A stretch of 64,000 nucleotides of DNA from Vitis vinifera (taxonomy: Eukaryota > Streptophyta > Magnoliopsida > Vitales > Vitaceae), in the NCBI RefSeq assembly GCF_030704535.1, contig NC_081817.1, positions 3,859,001 through 3,923,000 on the forward strand, in the 5' to 3' direction. The notes below the pieces were generated by a model. That model saw only the letters and a program-made list of their open reading frames with translations, made no database searches and was not told the origin of the DNA. Of the stretch, positions 3,680-58,480 are shown piece after piece (within the stretch, counting starts at the first letter, position 1; each line of letters begins with the position of its first letter). The position numbers were made by a program, and so were the translations under genes.

Positions 3680-3980
3680 ATGGCAAGAAAAAACTTTTTT
3701 CTCTGGTTTCTCCTTCTCAGTCTCATTTGCACTTTGTTCTGTACCCACAGTACTACAGCAATATAGATCCTGTGAAGGCTGTAGATCCTGGTCTGGTATA
3801 TGATGTCGATGAGATTGACTATGTAAAATTTTTGTGTGGGCAAGGTTATAGTACTCGGGCTCTATGGCGTCACTGGGGGTAATTGTGTCTGTTCTGCCGC
3901 TACAAATGGAACCGTCTGGAATCTAAATTACCCTTCCTTTGCTCTTTCCAGCTTCACCAAGGAATCTGTCACTGGAATGC
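3680..3980 (+). pseudogene. Subtilase pseudogene: leader exon fused to last exon by internal deletion
   Basis: The ATG at 3680 starts MARKNFFLWFLLLSLICTLF, the leader of the A/B/C subgroup. Near 3756-3762 the sequence jumps directly into exon 10 (NIDPVKAVDPGLVYDVDEIDYVKF...), skipping propeptide, catalytic Asp, His, Asn and Ser and all introns. The junction sits in GCAG-like microhomology shared by exon 1 and exon 10, and it changes frame. Small deletions break the frame again near 3870. Recognisable homology ends about 3980, after the segment like [15 protein letters not shown]. The promoter-proximal sequence before the ATG is still like that of B and C and there is no poly(A) tail, so this is a genomic deletion and not a retrocopy. 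No functional protease is possible. Confidence 0.88.
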
Positions 3981-9125: not shown

Positions 9126-9687
9126 AATTCCAAAAGCCTGGTGTTTTGTACCAGTGGAATTGTGGCATCTATCATATTGAACTAAATGATGTGGTATCTA
9201 TATAAGATGGAAATAAATGATAATATTCAGGATCGGTTGTATTACCTGTCCATACGGGCTATTGGATCAAATACCAAATCGCATGAGCCACTTGAACAGC
9301 CGGTAGACCCCCAGTTTTTTTTTTTTTTTTACCCTCCTAGCCACTTTTTTCTTGGGCCCACCTCGGTTGGTTTTTCAGTATTTACTCTCCCCAGAGCCCA
9401 GCTTTTCTTTTTGCTCCCCCTAGGCACTTTTCTCGGGGGCCCACCGCACCTTAATCCCTCTTGTTTGGTTCGTGTTTTGTTTTTTTTTTTGCCCTCACCA
9501 ACCCAAAATTGGAGTTTTAAGGACATTGGTTGAAATTATTGCCAAAACATACTTTTAAATTATAATCAAATAAAAATTTCATAATTACTCTAATTTTATC
9601 CAAATATGCACTTAAATAATAATAATAAAAAATAAGAGCTTCATAATATATATATATAAATCTTTATTGTTGAAAGTACATGTACAA
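9126..9687. other. 3' flank of gene B; no gene
   Basis: Holds a likely poly(A) signal region (AATAAA overlapping the stop, and another about 85 bases on), then the pyrimidine-rich stretch shared with the flanks of A and C, then AT-rich sequence homologous to about 1200-1400. The homology stops at the target-site duplication at 9688-9695 and resumes at 17908. Confidence 0.65.
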
Positions 9688-33995: not shown

Positions 33996-37650
<3,655 letters not shown>

Positions 37651-41089: not shown

Positions 41090-41372
41090 GCATATTCAAG
41101 GTTGGTTGCTATGAATGATAGACAACTTTAAACATAGATGATAGTCTTGGAAGTGTGTGGATATAGTGGGTTATATGATAGTTGCTAAGGTAGACTTTTT
41201 TGATGTGTGGATTCGAGGTTGGTTGCTATGAATGATAGACAACTTTAAACATAGATGATAGTCTTGGAAGTGTGTGGATATAGTGGGTTATATGGTAGTT
41301 GCTAAGGTAGATTTTTTTGATGTGTGGATTCGAGGTTGGTTGCTATAGGTGATAGACGACTTTAAACATAGA
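41090..41372. repeat. Tandem repeat, 117-bp period, interrupted by a solo LTR
   Basis: GTTGGTTGCT recurs at 41101, 41218 and 41335, an exact 117-base period. The third unit stops at 41372 and its continuation (GATAGTATTGGAAGTGTGTGG) resumes after the insertion at about 42534. Confidence 0.88.
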
Positions 41373-42528
41373 TGTTTGTACTCGCTTCCCGGTTAGAAAA
41401 GACAGTGTAGAAAATGTGATAAACATCCGGATATAATTCTCGGGTAGATTAACACATAAATAGGAACTACCACAGGAGTGGAGTGAGTGGTAAGTGGATA
41501 GAGTCGACGTGGGCACTGCTCTAATTAGTTACAATAGAACGTGGGAAGCAATAGGAGCAATTCCTGACATGATACAATCTCCCTAACAATTCTGCTGAGA
41601 TAGTTGCCAGAAAGGTAAATAAAAAGGCATTCAAACTGCAAAATAGGTAGGTCTTGGCTGGGGAGTTTTTCATCTAAGAATTATTTGCCAACAATTAATT
41701 AACTTAGGCATCGAAGGGGATTGCCCAGAAACATATTTGGGTGAGCTTTCTTTTGCAGGAAGAAAGGAAGGCTATCGATCAAGAGTAGCTGTTGATGCTA
41801 GATCAACCGAAAGAAACGTTTCTTCCTTGTTCCTGCAAAAGATGTTCGGACAGGTGGTCCGGACACACTCTCCGAAGCTCAAGTCAGATGATCAGTTAGA
41901 GAGAATGCGTCATTTTTATAGAAGCTTAGGAAAGAATGGATTATAATACCTCCCTCCTTTTTTTCTCTCCCCTTTCCTTTGAGTTATATATGGGAGGGTT
42001 TTTATAGTGTCTGGGCCCCGTCACATTTATGCTAAGATGCTCTTTTGACTTTCACAGTCATGATGGTTGCACAAATAGTAGCAGAGCAATCATGACTCTT
42101 TGGGTGGCCGACAAGGATCGTTGGTGGGGCGATCTGGTGGCTCGCTAGTCACCTCACTCTACAGACGACGTGGCATAGAGTGTAGTAGGTCCTTTGAGAG
42201 GACAAGGAGGCGTCCCATCAAGCGTACTTTTGATGGGAGGGGGAATGATTGCTTGTGGAAACTGACCAGGGATCCTGCTCGGCGTCATGTATTCTTAGAA
42301 GAGCACAAAAGGGATCCTGCTCGGCGTCATGCATTCTTAGAAGAGCACAAAGTAGCCGACCATTGACTCTTGGGGCCGGATTGGGGGTTCCTGATTGATT
42401 GCGTTTGTCCGGGCAAAGACAGAGGGACGCCATGTGTCCAATAGAAGGGTGCCTCTAAGGACCAAGGCAACCTGCCACGTGGTTGCCAAGGGGAGGTCCT
42501 TACAGTAGCAATCATCAAGAACCCAACA
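41373..42528. mobile_element. Solo LTR, 1156 bp
   Basis: Starts TGTTTGTACTCG, ends AACCCAACA (TG...CA), flanked by 5-bp duplication ATAGA at 41368-41372 and 42529-42533, and inserted in the third unit of the 117-bp repeat. Non-coding. It holds a TATA-like TTATATATGGG (near 41984) and a short tandem pair around GGATCCTGCTCGGCGTCATG (42270 and 42312). Strand not determined. The interrupted repeat independently confirms both boundaries. Confidence 0.88.
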
Positions 42529-42689: not shown

Positions 42690-43008
42690 GTTAAATAATA
42701 TAGTCCGAATAAGAAAAATTTAGAATAAAATATTCCAATGAAAAAGAAAAAAAACTTATATAACATGAATTTTTCTTAATACATAAAAGTAATGTATTTC
42801 CTAATTTCTTTCACCATCATTTTTACTTTTATTTTTATCAAACCCATTTAAAGAAATACAATGTTATTTTTCAATTTTTTTTCTATAACCCTTTAGTGAA
42901 GAATTACCTTTTATAAATAAATAAAATGAGGTTTATTTAGAAATTTAATTTTATTATTCAAGAACAAAGAATAATTTTTTAAAAAAGAAATTCAATTTAA
43001 TATATGTA
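42690..43008. repeat. Outer part of inverted-repeat left arm
   Basis: Reverse complement of this segment matches about 58220-58480 downstream of gene F (for example CCCTTTAGTGAAGAATTA against TAATTCTTCATTAAAGGG). It belongs to the E/F inverted duplication and was separated from it by the Copia insertion. Confidence 0.7.
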
Positions 43009-43239
43009 AATAAAAATATATTTTTGTAATAAAATATGAGAAATATTTATCGAACTATGAGAACTTGTGGATGATCATTCGTTATGATGTATATTTCTTT
43101 GTGAGTCCTTATAAAAGATGAGACCTCTAATGAAAATTCATTTAATTTTCTCCCTACATCTTAGACCAATTGTTGGTGTTTTAAGACAAGCTAAGGAAAT
43201 AAGACACAATAGAAAATAGAGAAAATATATAAGTGGAAG

Positions 43240-44600
43240 TCACTTCAAACTCAAGTAAGCCTTCCAACATTTCTGATTTTTGCATTTTGAGAAGCCCTTG
43301 ATAATGATAGTGCCCCAGTCGCTTATGCCGTAACTCAGCAATATTTTCTTTTGCTGGAAAAGCTATTTGTTCTTCCTTAAGTGGATCTAATGAGAAGCTT
43401 TTTCCTCTCATTTTGACCTTAAACAACTATTTCAGGTACGTAAAGCACATCATCAATGACTTTAGTACCTAAATGGGTTGCAATAGCAACAGTTCCAATT
43501 CCTTTCGTAGGAATATGACCACCGTGACTTATCCAGACTCTTGCAATTCTTGTAGGCTTCAATTCTTTGAAAAGTTCCTTGTCATGAGTCATGTGATTGG
43601 TGCATCCACTATCAATCAACCAGCTATCGCTTGAAATGCTACCTAAAAAACAAGTTACAACAAAGAGATGATCATTTTCATCTTCATTAGCGATTTGGGC
43701 ATCTGTGTCTTGCTGCTGATTTTGGTTCTTGCAAATGATAGCTTCATGTCCAAGTTGATTGCACTTGTTACACTTAGCATCTGGCCTTTTCCAGCACTTG
43801 AATGGTGAGTGGCTAGTTCTGTCACAATGCTTACAAGGTGGGTACTTTCCTTTGGAACTTCCAGCTTTGTTTTTGTTGCTCCTATGCACCGCAGCTTCTC
43901 CATTTGCTTGTTGGTGCTTTCTATTTTTCTTCTTTTTGTTTCTCCAACCATCTTCATGTTTGGCGGGCAAGGCTTCGTCTACAGTTGCTTCTTGTCTCAT
44001 AACCATCCATTGTTCTTGTGCCTGCAAAGAGTTCAACAACTCTGCCAACGTGATTTTGGACAAATCTTTGGTATTTTCCAAAGTGGTTATGGTAGCTTCA
44101 AATCTTTTAGGAATAGTAATCAGAATTTTTTCAACAATACGAGAGTCTTTAAACTCCGAACCAAGCAATCTTACTTTGTTGGCTATGCTTAAAAGCCTTT
44201 CAGAGTACTCCTTGATGGTTTATGACTCTTTCATCTTCTACAACTCGAAATCTCTAATTAGATTCAGCACTTTCATGCCTTTAATTCGATCATCTCCTTC
44301 ATATTCAAATTTGAGATAACTCCATATGACTTTAGCTGATTTCAAAGACATAATTCGGGTGAAGATTGTAGCTGAAATTGCTGCAAATAGGCAAGCTTTT
44401 GCCTTAGACTTCCTGGTTTTCCTTTCCTTGTGATTCTTGACTTGAGCCATCGTTGGGTTGTCTAATATCAGAGGAATGTCATAGTCATCTTCAACAGCCT
44501 CCCATAGATCTACAGCGTCTAGGTAGGCTTCCATCCGCACAACTCATATGGTGTAATTATCACCATTGAAGACTGGAGGTGCCATTGCTGAGAAACTTGA
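43240..44600 (-). pseudogene. Copia gag-protease-pre-integrase remnant
   Basis: Minus strand. A gag segment (44540-44238) with AYLDAVDLWEAVEDDY is broken by two in-frame stops near 44237-44216, then continues (ANKVRLLGSEFKDSR..., 44168-43419) to a zinc knuckle CNKCNQLGHEAIIC and the protease motif SWLIDSGCTNHMT. Near 43426 it shifts frame to the GAG-pre-integrase segment RHKRLGHYHYQGLLKMQ, ending about 43245. Deletion removed the rest of pol. The opposite-strand frames here are shadows. Confidence 0.85.
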
Positions 44601-44707
44601 GTCTCTTTCCATGCTTGAAATTTTGGTGGAATACGTGGTGTTTTGGTGGCCCTCAAATCTCTTGAAAACTCACAATTTTTTTCACTCACGATCCCTCAAG
44701 AATATAA

Positions 44708-44722
44708 AGCTCTGATACCAAA
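44708..44722 (-). other. Copia primer-binding site
   Basis: TGGTATCAGAGC on the minus strand, complementary to the 3' end of initiator methionine tRNA, as usual in plant Copia elements, just upstream of gag. Confidence 0.75.
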
Positions 44723-44865
44723 AGAATGCTTGAAATAAAAAATAAAAAAATAAATTCATCTATAAAATTTATTATAGGTATGTAACTTTATTTTCTTTAA
44801 ACAAAATATGAAAAGTAGTATGCGTGCATTATATTTAATTGTTATAATTTTTATTTACTTTATCT

Positions 44866-46020
44866 CATAACAAGAAGTTATGTAAATCATATTTCATATA
44901 ATCAAATCAAAAATTTGTAACTATAGATATTTTAATTATTTAATAATTAGAAGTTATATAGAAAAAATTTTCATTATTAAAAGTTATGAAAAAATAAGTA
45001 CAATCCTCATAACCAGAAGTTATAGGGTAAATTATGCATATGATTCCTAATTATTTTTTAATTATACTATATAACTGTAAGTTATACAAAACAATATTAT
45101 ATAGTCAGAAGTTATATAATGAATAGTTCATAACTTAAAGTTATATGCAAATTTGCATAATGAATAGTTCATAATCTAAAGTTATTTTCAAATTTACACG
45201 TACAACAAATAATTCATAACCTAAAGTTATATAACAAATTTGCACTTTTTTTTGTTCTGATAAAATAATCATAGTTCGAAGCTATGAAAAATATTCATTT
45301 TTAATTTCTATTTCATATTCGCGCATTTTCCATAACTAGAAATTATTGAAACATTCTTTATTACAATTATTTCATAGCTAGAAGCTATACACACAATTTC
45401 TAATTTTTTTGTATAACCATAAATTATATAAAACAAAATTATCAATTAACAACTATATAACTAGAAAATACAAAGACAATTTTTAATTTTGTTATATAAC
45501 CCAAAGTTATATCATAACATAATTATCAATTGTTTAATGTTATTATAATATTACTCAAATTTTAATTATTCATAGCCTAAAACTATGGGAAAAAAAAGGT
45601 TAGTAAATTAATAATTGTTAAAACTCGAATAACCAAAAGTTATATAAAAAATATTTTATTATAAACTTATATTATATAGACAGAAGTTATATAAATATTA
45701 TTATTCATAACTTGAAGTTAAGAAAATGAGAAAATTAATATTCTTTGTAATCAAATATTACGCCAAAGTTGCTAATATGTATTTTCTTATGCCTAGAAGC
45801 TATAGAGAACAAAATTGTTAACTAACAATTTTGTACAATTTTATGAAATTCACGTAACCAAAAGTTATAATAAAAAATATTATAGCCTAAAACTATGATA
45901 ACAAGCATGTAGATAATATTTACATATTATCAAAAGATCAATATTTTGTATATTAAGCTATACAAATAGGTAAGTTCTTGATAATTTTTTATGAACTCCT
46001 ATTATTAGAAGTTACATCGT
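44866..46020 (-). repeat. Array of about 22 short hairpin (dyad) repeats
   Basis: About 22 copies of a 17-base dyad, YATARY-NNRAA-RYTATR on the plus strand, spaced roughly 30-70 bases. Examples: CATAAC-AAGAA-GTTATG (44866), CATAGT-TCGAA-GCTATG (45270), CATAGC-TAGAA-GCTATA (45373), TATAAC-CCAAA-GTTATA (45495), CATAGC-CTAAA-ACTATG (45571). Arms vary together and the 5-base loop nearly always ends AA, so all units point the same way. Spacers share little. It lies upstream of the primer-binding site of the Copia element. Function unknown. Confidence 0.75.
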
Positions 46021-47653
46021 CATTAATAGAAATATTTACATATAAATGTGGAATTTTGTGTTACATGAATTTATGATATTTATACTTAATATTTTTGTGT
46101 CAAAGGTGATATTTTTACATATTTTTATTCTAGTTGTTTAATACACAATAATTTTTTATATGATATAATAGTTGAGATTAATCTTAATCTTTATTTTCCA
46201 ATATCTAATGTAAAATATATTTGTTATTCATATAGAAAGTTAAGATTTTTAGATAGCATATGTGCTTATGTTCCAAAAATTCTGGATAACATCTTTTTAT
46301 TTGGTTGTATATGATTTAAATTTTTAATGCTTTAAAAAGTATGTATAAAAATTCTTCTCATGTAAAAAAAAAAAAAAAAAAAGTTTGGATTTACTTATTG
46401 ATAATTTAATACTGAAATTATGCGTTGAAAATTTTGAGTACATAATTTGTTTTGAATACATGTGAAATATATGACTTGGTCATATAATTAATAATATGAT
46501 TTTATATGTCAATTTTCTTTAAGCCATGTTTTATTTATTTATTTTTTTAGGATTGCAAAAATTTTAGTTATATAAAATAATATATATTATTGCAGGCATG
46601 TTTCCACATATAATATTTTTATTAATGCAATAATTTTATCATCCAACAATAATTTTGAAATTACAATAGATTCAACTCTTGCTTTCAATATATTTTATTA
46701 TATCTTTGTATATATATTTAGATATATTTATGGTGGTTCAATTAAAGTTTTGAGACATGAAAAAATTGCAAGATGCTTTAAATCATGATGTGTTCTCTTA
46801 AAATTTTGATATATGAATTAATTTTTATACATTGATTTAGATCATAATAATATGTGAATAAAAATTATTGATCTATTATTACAATTAGTTAGATTATTGA
46901 AATACTTAGTTATTTCATGCATAAATTACTCCACACTTACGAAATCAAATATGTGAAATATTCAAGAAATATGTAACTTTAAATTATCTTTCTGATATTT
47001 TTTTGTTCTATTATATATATTGTGGGAACTTGTGGATGGTTATATATTATGATATATATCTCTTTATGACTTCTTATAAAATGGGATGGTTATATTATAT
47101 ATAAAAGTTCATTCAACTTTCTTCCTACATTCTATTTTCTTTTTCTCGTTTTCTTTTTCTATCACTTTATCATTTTACGACATTACTTTATTATTTTACA
47201 ACAACATATTTGATTTATTTTCAAAGGAATTAATAATAAAACTTTGATTTAAAAGAGAAATTTTAGGATAAGGATGATTTAGTAATAAAAATCTTTATTT
47301 TACAAAAATCTGACGATGTTTTGTCTCAAGTGTTAGATAAACTTTTTTATTAGATAAAATTGAGGGATTTATAGATAGGCTTTAGTGTTAAGTGATATAA
47401 AAACCCCCAAGTTTCTCTTTCTCTTTCTCTCATTTTTCAAAGTTAGTTATTTTATCAAATACCCCTTATTTTATATTCTTTTATTTATCTCTTTTGCTGG
47501 CCGTAAACATATTCCTCTGAGTCCTTGAAGCCTAGTAGATGCGAATATAGGATAATATGTCCTCTACGATTGTATCTCATTACAATTCTAGGATACAAGC
47601 CCCTATTTATTAGCAGAGATAAAAATAATAATAATCAATGAGGACAGGAAATT

Positions 47654-50946
<3,293 letters not shown>

Positions 50947-53950: not shown

Positions 53951-57367
<3,417 letters not shown>

Positions 57368-57727
57368 GTAAAATTTCTTGTCCTCGCAGATCTTCGCCTC
57401 TGTCGTGTCTAGCTTTTAATAAATCTCATCAATGTTTATTTATTTTTGTCATATCCTAGAATTGTAATGAAACACAATCATACAGAACATATTATCCATT
57501 GTTCGCATGTACTATGGCTTGTGGTACTAAGAAGTTTAGGGCTAAACACACAAAAATAATTACGTAAAAGAGATAAATAAAAGAATATAAGACCAGGGAT
57601 GTTTGATAAAATTAATAGCTAATATATGAAAAGTGAATAAGAGAGTGACCTTGGCTACGTTGTGGGTTTGATAACATAAATTTTTGTCACTCAACTCTAC
57701 ACTAAATGCTACTTACAAACCCTACAA

Positions 57728-57893: not shown

Positions 57894-58480
57894 AAGGTTA
57901 TTGGAAACCAATTTTGGAAATCTAACACTTCATTCTTTTTTAACCTCATTTTTACAAAAATGTTCTTATTATTTTCTTGTAAAAATAACTCTTTCTTTTA
58001 ATACATATTGTAAATACTTGAAATAGTCAAGGACATTTATGTCAAAAATGGGTTTTTTTTTTTTTTTAATAAAAGTATGGAAATAGTTAAATTCGTAAGT
58101 ATAGAGAGTATTTCATCATTTTTAATCAATTATTTCTTTTAAATTTTTATAATCTACTAAATCATCTCTTCTTTTAAATCAAAATTTTATTATTAGTTCC
58201 TTAAAAAATAAATCAAATTCTATTTTATTTGACATATTAAAATTGAATTTTCTTTTAAAATAAAATATTTTATTCTTTATTCTTTAATAATAAAATTGAA
58301 TTTCTAAATAAACTAAATTTAAGTTATTTATAAAAGCTAATTCTTCATTAAAGGGTTATAGAAAAAAAAATGAAAGATATCATTGCATTTCTTTAAATGG
58401 TTTTGACAAAAATAACAGTAAAAATGATCCTAAAGTAAATTAGGAAATGGATCATTTTTATGTACTATGAAGATTTTTTT

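What the first reader, a model, noticed from the sequence alone, without database searches (positions are those of the whole stretch)
44866..46020. Array of ~22 same-direction 17-base dyads with compensating arm changes
Seen directly: a repeated unit YATARY-NNRAA-RYTATR in which the 6-base arms stay complementary while changing together (CATAAC/GTTATG, CATAGC/GCTATA, CATAGT/GCTATG, TATAAC/GTTATA). The loop stays at 5 bases and nearly always ends AA. Spacers are AT-rich and not conserved, so pairing or a two-fold protein contact, and not simple duplication, appears to be what is kept. It sits just 5' of the primer-binding site of a Copia element, where an LTR promoter or RNA leader would be. 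I know no named feature with this form. Function is inference.
Basis: partly seen in the sequence, partly recalled or inferred. Interest (0 to 1): 0.78.

Follow-up and report, generated by a model that had tools for sequence, protein, structure and literature searches.

The report
Hairpin-repeat leader of old Copia retrotransposon
A plant genome's old, multi-copy Copia-type jumping gene carries, in the stretch between its start and its genes, about 20 to 30 small mirror-image repeats whose two halves have changed together, which suggests that they worked as a row of tiny RNA hairpins.

Summary
The array is real: 10 strict and 25 relaxed 17-base dyads at 44866-46016, against means of 0.003 and 1.3 in shuffles. 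It does not belong to the Copia whose primer-binding site lies beside it. That copy (43159-44721, minus strand) is a later nested insertion. The array sits, sense strand, in the 5' leader of another LTR retrotransposon (43025-47206, 5-base target duplication), probably Copia-type, with many copies. In 29 aligned copies there are 31 orthologous dyads. Across them pairing partners 1-17 and 5-13 are the most correlated of 36 position pairs at one decay threshold (phi 0.94, 0.77) and, with one dyad per flank group, at both; at the other threshold 5-13 (0.50) falls just below 5-7 (0.53). Non-Watson-Crick pairs are more often G-U than C-A on the sense strand (9:1; genome-wide 790 vs 414, partly descent). 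Best reading: a row of weak RNA hairpins, loop mostly YNRAA, in the transcript, perhaps a multivalent Gag or host-protein dock. Against it: copies decay at dyads nearly as in spacers, the window copy alone covaries weakly, and arm-copying or a DNA-binding array is not excluded. Function is inferred.

The parts
43019..43023 (.). Target-site duplication, left copy (TATTT)
   Evidence: Read by eye output; identical to 47207-47211; the flanks align to a paralogous site without the element at 58218-58223
43025..43158 (+). 5' LTR of the array element, cut short by the nested Copia copy (one extra T, 43024, lies between it and the duplication)
   Evidence: 75% identity over 109 columns to the 3' LTR; matches LTR-position sequence of other copies
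43159..44721 (-). Nested Copia-type copy (gag and start of pol; primer-binding-like GGTATCAGAGC, minus strand, at its right end), not part of the array element
   Evidence: Pfam Retrotran_gag_2 3.5e-11 and Pol_BBD 9.3e-20; six other genome copies at 94-95% use the same outer bases with other flanks
44722..44865 (+). Leader of the array element between the nested copy and the first dyad
   Evidence: Aligned with leader of L018, L012, L027 and others
44866..46016 (+). Dyad array: 25 relaxed (10 strict) 17-base dyads in one direction
   Evidence: 31 orthologous dyads in 29 aligned copies
44866..44882 (+). Dyad with six Watson-Crick pairs (CATAAC AAGAA GTTATG)
45070..45086 (+). Dyad with six Watson-Crick pairs (TATAAC TGTAA GTTATA)
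45495..45511 (+). Dyad with six Watson-Crick pairs (TATAAC CCAAA GTTATA)
46017..47003 (+). Rest of the internal region, AT-rich; no frame of 120 codons or more lies within it
   Evidence: Aligned in part with the region after the array in other copies (query R)
47004..47206 (+). 3' LTR of the array element (begins TGTT, ends ACA)
   Evidence: start and end read by eye
47207..47211 (.). Target-site duplication, right copy (TATTT)
   Evidence: output, read by eye
58218..58223 (-). Paralogous site without the element
   Evidence: 42773-43015 aligns to 58471-58223 and 47208-47256 to 58218-58170

Best explanation
Shown: the array is part of the 5' leader (between 5' LTR and genes, sense strand) of an old, multi-copy LTR retrotransposon family, Copia-type as far as its one recognisable coding remnant tells. 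The four copies listed carry 20 to 33 relaxed dyads, at spacings shared by many copies. Shown: across the 31 orthologous dyads the pairing partners 1-17 and 5-13 vary together more than nearly all other position pairs. Inferred: in the family's active past each dyad was kept as a base-paired unit, most likely a weak 6-pair hairpin with a 5-base loop (mostly Y-N-R-A-A) in the element's own RNA. Inferred with less support: the row of hairpins is a multivalent docking platform, most plausibly for the element's Gag (packaging or dimer formation of the genomic RNA), otherwise for a host RNA-binding protein. The window copy is an old, decayed copy without coding sequence and probably does nothing now.
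For: Place: L027 has LTR 3735-3951, array, coding remnants, PPT AAAGGGGGAG and a second LTR 9158-9375 at 91.6% identity, with ATATT on both sides (ends read by eye). Relatives of its RNaseH-like ORF lie 3-10 kb downstream of an array, same strand, at 13 of the first 50 listed matches (L027 itself is one of the 13), using the 40 arrays scored. A relative (61% over 41 residues) lies in an intact frame with RVT_2 at 9.1e-51. Pairing: phi 0.94 (1-17) and 0.77 (5-13) over 31 family-level dyads, next of 36 pairs 0.46 in size (threshold 0.4); one dyad per flank group gives 0.89 and 0.79, next 0.45, and at threshold 0.5 0.80 and 0.71, next 0.42. Permutation P with one dyad per group (18) is 0.0006 and 0.0018 at threshold 0.4, 0.0024 and 0.0044 at 0.5. 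CG and TA outer pairs each occur with AT and GC inner pairs. Founder types alone would be expected to link all positions (inference). Strand: non-Watson-Crick pairs in family-level dyads are 9 G-U to 1 C-A at threshold 0.4, 11:3 at 0.5, 6:1 at 0.3. Genome-wide T-G 489 vs C-A 212, G-T 301 vs A-C 202. Loop: position 9 purine 2449 vs pyrimidine 401. Direction: strict dyads in the 29 leaders are 305 sense, 0 antisense; no locus had clusters on both strands (402 clustered instances, 31 loci; 86 lone ones not counted).
Against: Between copies dyad A/T columns (0.07-0.17, mean about 0.115) differ little less than spacer A/T columns (0.13-0.15): hardly any constraint is visible between copies. In the window alone covariation is weak. 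At threshold 0.5, 5-13 (phi 0.50) is below 5-7 (0.53) and 23 of 31 dyads are Watson-Crick there. A harsher reading of the group permutation (permuted value at least the lowest observed) gives 0.00025 and 0.014. The genome-wide T-G excess is partly descent: dyad number 30 and an 80-base tandem unit carry T-G. Pair 6-12 shows no covariation (CG 246, TG 69, CA 40, TA 16), and one family-level dyad has C-A there. Hairpins are weak, 0 to -6.2 kcal/mol on the sense strand, and many are slightly stronger on the antisense strand, where position 7 can pair with 11. In a span-limited fold 3-10 of 9-19 strict dyads per copy form their own hairpin, and both strands fold better than shuffles. No protein partner is known.
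Confidence: 0.5

Rival explanations
1. DNA-level array: repeated binding sites of a dimeric protein encoded by the element or the host, like the same-direction motif arrays bound by VANC anti-silencing proteins in VANDAL transposons, or like dyad-symmetric transcription boxes.
For: Same-direction dense arrays of a short motif in non-coding parts of a transposable element are what PMC5735166 describes for VANC21 (passages). The dyad form fits a two-fold protein. Spacings show a weak period near 11 (R 0.53, P 0.014 after a 7-16 scan, n=25), as helical phasing might give.
Against: A dimer reading each half-site alone predicts no correlation between halves; the halves correlate. A symmetric site does not explain the fixed direction and the one-sided loop RAA. 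G-U-type departures exceed C-A-type. The period is nearer 11.2 than 10.5 (R 0.32 at 10.5, P 0.08).
Confidence: 0.22
2. Mutational origin: the arms agree because one arm is copied from the other (template switching at quasi-palindromes during reverse transcription or replication), and dyads spread by duplication; no selected function.
For: Duplicated modules are visible (flank groups; 80-base tandem units in L041 and L042). Template switching at short inverted repeats is a known source of such correction (recalled). Constraint is hardly seen between copies.
Against: Arm copying should treat G-U and C-A departures alike; the excess of G-U is against it, though partly descent. The loop RAA is kept in dyads with unlike flanks.
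Confidence: 0.2
3. Plain tandem repeat: the array is a decayed minisatellite in a leader whose unit happened to be palindromic, with no pairing constraint.
For: Tandem Repeats Finder sees a 41-base unit, 3 copies, at 45116-45244; tandem repeats in leaders are common (general knowledge).
Against: Correlation is strongest at the pairing partners; pair types combine freely; flanks outside the duplicated groups are unlike (mean 12 of 28 bases over all dyad pairs).
Confidence: 0.08

Closest known systems
VANC-target motif arrays of VANDAL (Mutator-type, class recalled) transposons, Arabidopsis (PMC5735166)
   Same: Many copies of a short motif, in one direction, dense, in non-coding parts of a transposable element, changing by tandem duplication
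   Different: 9-base motif YAGTATTAY bound as DNA; the word palindrome does not occur in the paper's text; no LTRs (recalled)
Repeated palindromic motif boxes of Sirevirus retrotransposons (PMC2829016)
   Same: High-copy dyad-symmetric motif in non-coding parts of a Copia-type element
   Different: CGG-CCG core forming CpG islands, in the LTR upstream of the promoter and before the env-like gene; here AT-rich, in the leader, with a loop of fixed size
SIRC, short interrupted repeat cassettes of Arabidopsis (PMC10342631)
   Same: Short direct repeats separated by unlike spacers, common in mobile elements; some with palindromes
   Different: Found with CRISPRCasFinder; about 57% have no palindrome; linked by its authors to MITEs
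Leader packaging and dimerisation structures of Ty1 RNA (PMC5454406)
   Same: Paired RNA elements near the 5' end of an LTR retrotransposon's RNA
   Different: A few distinct structures including a pseudoknot and kissing loops, not a row of 20-30 like hairpins
Variable untranslated leaders of grapevine Copia families Noble and Tvv1 (PMC2576258)
   Same: Length-variable leader between a short LTR and the ORF
   Different: Noble leaders are 269-695 bases and start with TGGTATCAGAGCC; no dyad array is mentioned in the passages read; the Tvv1 leader paper was not held

Membership tests
LTR retrotransposon (for the array element) | Two LTRs with TG...CA ends and a 5-base target duplication | tested here: met
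   Window copy 43025-47206 with TATTT on both sides (one extra T at the left end); L027 LTR pair 91.6% with ATATT on both sides (ends read by eye)
Copia type (for the array element) | Copia-type pol | tested here: inconclusive
   Only an RNaseH-like remnant that resembles part of an intact frame with RVT_2; the remnants themselves have no convincing Pfam match
   Opposite strands; the Copia copy has its own dispersed relatives with the same outer bases and other flanks; array copies elsewhere have 80-140 bases in its place
VANC-target array | VANC21 motif YAGTATTAY or VANC6 motif AGTTGTCC/AGTTGTAC, dense | tested here: not met
   0 in the window element on both strands; in 29 leaders (38,992 bases) YAGTATTAY 0 sense and 1 antisense, AGTTGTMC 0 sense and 17 antisense, not a dense array
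VANC-target array | Bound by a protein as DNA | not testable with these tools
   No binding data
Sirevirus palindromic repeated motif | CGG-CCG core | tested here: not met
   No CGG or CCG in the array or the rest of the window element outside the nested copy
SIRC | Direct repeats detected by CRISPRCasFinder and the paper's filters | not tested
   Program not at hand; the form is alike
Described RNA family (Rfam 15) | Match at gathering score | tested here: not met
   0 matches in the window
RNA hairpin array | Joint change of pairing partners beyond other position pairs | tested here: met
   not clear in the window copy alone, not for pair 6-12, and 5-13 third by size at threshold 0.5 over all 31
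RNA hairpin array | G-U tolerated, C-A not, on one strand | tested here: inconclusive
   9:1, 11:3 or 6:1 by threshold; genome-wide 790 vs 414 over two pairs but swollen by descent

The most novel reading that the evidence does not exclude
A Copia-type retrotransposon family carries in its RNA leader a row of 20-30 weak hairpins with a YNRAA pentaloop, kept by selection on pairing and loop while spacers drifted: a multivalent RNA docking array in a plant LTR element, working like phage coat-protein or packaging hairpins but by number and not by strength.
Probability: 0.42. Interest if true: 0.75.

Novelty: new variant of a known kind. Interest (0 to 1): 0.55.

Why it matters
How plant LTR retrotransposons select their own RNA for packaging is poorly known (general knowledge). 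A repeated, self-similar hairpin with some two thousand natural variants in one genome gives a ready test set for a Gag or host-protein RNA contact. If it turns out to be DNA-level instead, it would be a motif array in an LTR element resembling the anti-silencing target arrays of DNA transposons. It also warns that a primer-binding site next to an array need not belong to it.

Tried and rejected
Rejected: array as part of the adjacent Copia. Rejected: a named RNA family. Thought unlikely: a two-founder duplication account, since correlations centre on pairing partners. Naming the family: L027's LTRs begin TGTT and end AACA, as PMC2576258 says of Brand and Rangen, but no sequence was at hand to compare. 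Literature: eight searches were answered and I saw no paper describing this array in their listings; the library lacks most subscription journals.

Rows dropped: one search left out L001-L008 (single-motif loci) and L016, L017 (doubles), and counted 402 clustered of 488 instances; one search found the array in 30 sequences and aligned 29 (L038 left out for length; L013 gave no hit); one search used 23 of the 25 relaxed window dyads (45427 and 45866, which overlap neighbours, left out). In one search the pattern places added to the 40 scored arrays were picked by eye from listings cut at 100 places, so its 25 of 50 is not a blind count; with the 40 arrays alone it is 13 of 50, the query's own place included. 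The flank groups were set by eye from the flank-identity table and include some pairs at 18 of 28; one search used 25 of 30 spacings, repeats of the same group pair removed by hand.

Full report
WHAT IS THERE. The window is part of contig 13 of a 495.6 Mb assembly in 21 contigs. Size and contig number fit grapevine, which I recall and did not test. Dinucleotide shuffles give means of 0.003 and 1.3. Generic dyads (any letters, 6-base arms, 5-base loop) are only 6 against a mean of 1.8 and a maximum of 7 in 150 shuffles: it is the motif, not dyads as such, that is far beyond chance. With C and G fixed at positions 6 and 12 the counts are 2449 against 102 in the control. On the part of contig 1 listed many matches come in same-direction clusters.

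WHOSE ARRAY. A DNA search with the array finds matches on 19 of 21 contigs: 40 of 408 candidates were scored, 92 matching pieces, 68-88% identical apart from the window itself. Several copies match the window near 43000-43159 and then jump to 44722 or later. The piece in between is a Copia-type copy on the minus strand, with gag and the first part of pol. Six other copies of it, 94-95% over the main piece, use the same outer bases (43159, 44721), with other flanks. It is therefore a nested insertion, and its primer-binding site lies beside the array by accident. In those six copies an 87-base terminal piece follows the primer-binding end; the window copy has this piece at its left end and not there.

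The array element itself runs from 43025 to 47206 with TATTT on both sides. A paralogous stretch of the same window lacks it (58218-58223). A longer copy, L027, shows the plan: LTR, about 50 bases with a primer-binding-like stretch, array, about 0.6 kb, coding remnants, polypurine tract, LTR. One remnant resembles Copia RNaseH by recalled motif. Its relatives lie 3-10 kb downstream of arrays on the same strand at 13 of the first 50 listed matches, L027 itself included, and one relative, 61% over 41 residues, lies in an intact frame with RVT_2. The array is thus in the leader, in sense direction. The window copy lacks the coding part and its LTRs are 75% identical over 109 columns: old and decayed.

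DO THE ARMS CHANGE TOGETHER. I first chose dyads by positions that are not under test (ATA, RAA, TAT): 402 clustered of 488 instances, in 31 loci. Pair 1-17 is CG 140, TA 128, TG 48, CA 33. Pair 5-13 is AT 173, GC 102, GT 52, AC 42. Pair 6-12 is CG 246, TG 69, CA 40, TA 16 (other combinations are rarer). The first two covary, the third does not. Aligning 29 copies gives 31 orthologous dyads. Family-level letters (threshold 0.4 for decay) give 1-17 as CG 17, TA 12, TG 1, AA 1, and 5-13 as GC 14, AT 13, GT 4; 0 of 20,000 permutations reach either value. Because some dyads are duplicates, I took one per flank-similarity group (18): P 0.0006 and 0.0018 at threshold 0.4, 0.0024 and 0.0044 at 0.5; a harsher comparison gave 0.00025 and 0.014. 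Of 36 position pairs, 1-17 (phi 0.94) and 5-13 (0.77) stand out at threshold 0.4; the next is 0.46 in size. At threshold 0.5 the values are 0.88 and 0.50, with 5-7 at 0.53. Among group representatives the two pairing partners lead at both thresholds (next 0.45 and 0.42), and so they do among 244 unique single instances, where values are lower, 0.31 and 0.39, next 0.24 in size.

WHAT SPEAKS AGAINST. Between copies at one dyad most change is decay of C and G, and dyad A/T columns vary only a little less than spacer A/T columns (mean about 0.115 against 0.13-0.15). The constraint, if it was one, acted in the past of the family and is seen between dyads. In the window copy alone the signal is weak.

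RNA, DNA OR MUTATION. If hairpins formed in the sense RNA, T-G and G-T (as U-G and G-U) would be tolerated and C-A and A-C not. At 1-17 and 5-13 the two kinds should arise about equally by decay because the sequence context is palindromic (inference), and spacers show no strand bias: 67 of 81 columns with C as the main base are C/T-variable, 56 of 69 with G are A/G-variable. Family-level dyads have 9 G-U to 1 C-A (11:3 and 6:1 at other thresholds); these are not all independent. Genome-wide counts are 489 to 212 for 1-17 and 301 to 202 for 5-13. Part of the first is descent from one dyad and from an 80-base tandem unit. The loop purine at position 9 is 2449 to 401, and many of the listed places among the 401 are, by eye, antisense reads of dyads with the loop TTGAA. 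Local folding is better than shuffles in the 12 copies tested, on both strands (z -2.6 to -11.1), which the dyads force and which does not choose a strand; single hairpins are often slightly stronger on the antisense strand. Spacings have a weak period near 11.2 (R 0.53, n 25, P 0.014); I would not build on it. A symmetric DNA site explains neither the arm-to-arm correlation nor the one-sided loop; arm-copying explains the correlation but not the G-U excess. RNA pairing explains most, with the weak stems, the silent 6-12 pair and the antisense stability as its soft points.

FUNCTION. The step from hairpins to a Gag or host-protein dock is inference from place (leader), number, and the known use of paired leader elements in Ty1 RNA (PMC5454406, passages, some from the abstract). 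The nearest array by form is the VANC target array (PMC5735166, passages), a DNA-level system; its motifs are not dense here. Sirevirus boxes (PMC2829016, passages) and SIRCs (PMC10342631, outline and passages) are also near. In PMC2576258 (passages and section 13) grapevine Copia leaders of variable length are described, without an array in what I read.

VERDICT. Most likely the remains of an RNA hairpin row in the leader of an old Copia-type family.

Noticed in passing
window 43159-44721: Nested Copia-type copy has an 87-base LTR-like piece at its left end, while six other copies carry it on the primer-binding side; compared with L018 and L027 it took the place of the last 50-85 bases of the host LTR and the primer-binding region.
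   Followed up: partly
window 47640-50492 and 54536-57385: Large inverted duplication at 94% identity with subtilase (Peptidase_S8, fn3_6) gene pieces in its left arm; a further fn3_6 piece at 37099-37650 and other repeats suggest a gene cluster.
   Followed up: partly
window 41094-41374: 117-base tandem repeat, 2.4 copies, 95% matches; also a 42-base duplication (97%) at 42268-42351.
   Followed up: no
L024:6503-8998: Open frames with matches to viral movement protein, caulimovirus coat domain and zinc knuckle, downstream of an array: an endogenous caulimovirus-like stretch beside or in the element.
   Followed up: no
L041 (contig 2, 8036801-8039000): Arrays on both strands within 2.2 kb, with an 80-base unit (45 + 35) holding two dyads, repeated several times.
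   Followed up: partly
31 dyads of the alignment: Dyad start-to-start spacings bunch near 30, 41, 54, 62-65, 76 and 84, a period near 11.2 that may be chance or phasing.
   Followed up: partly
29 array leaders: AGTTGTMC, the published VANC6 motif, occurs 17 times antisense and never sense in 38,992 bases; probably one or two shared positions, not looked at further.
   Followed up: no
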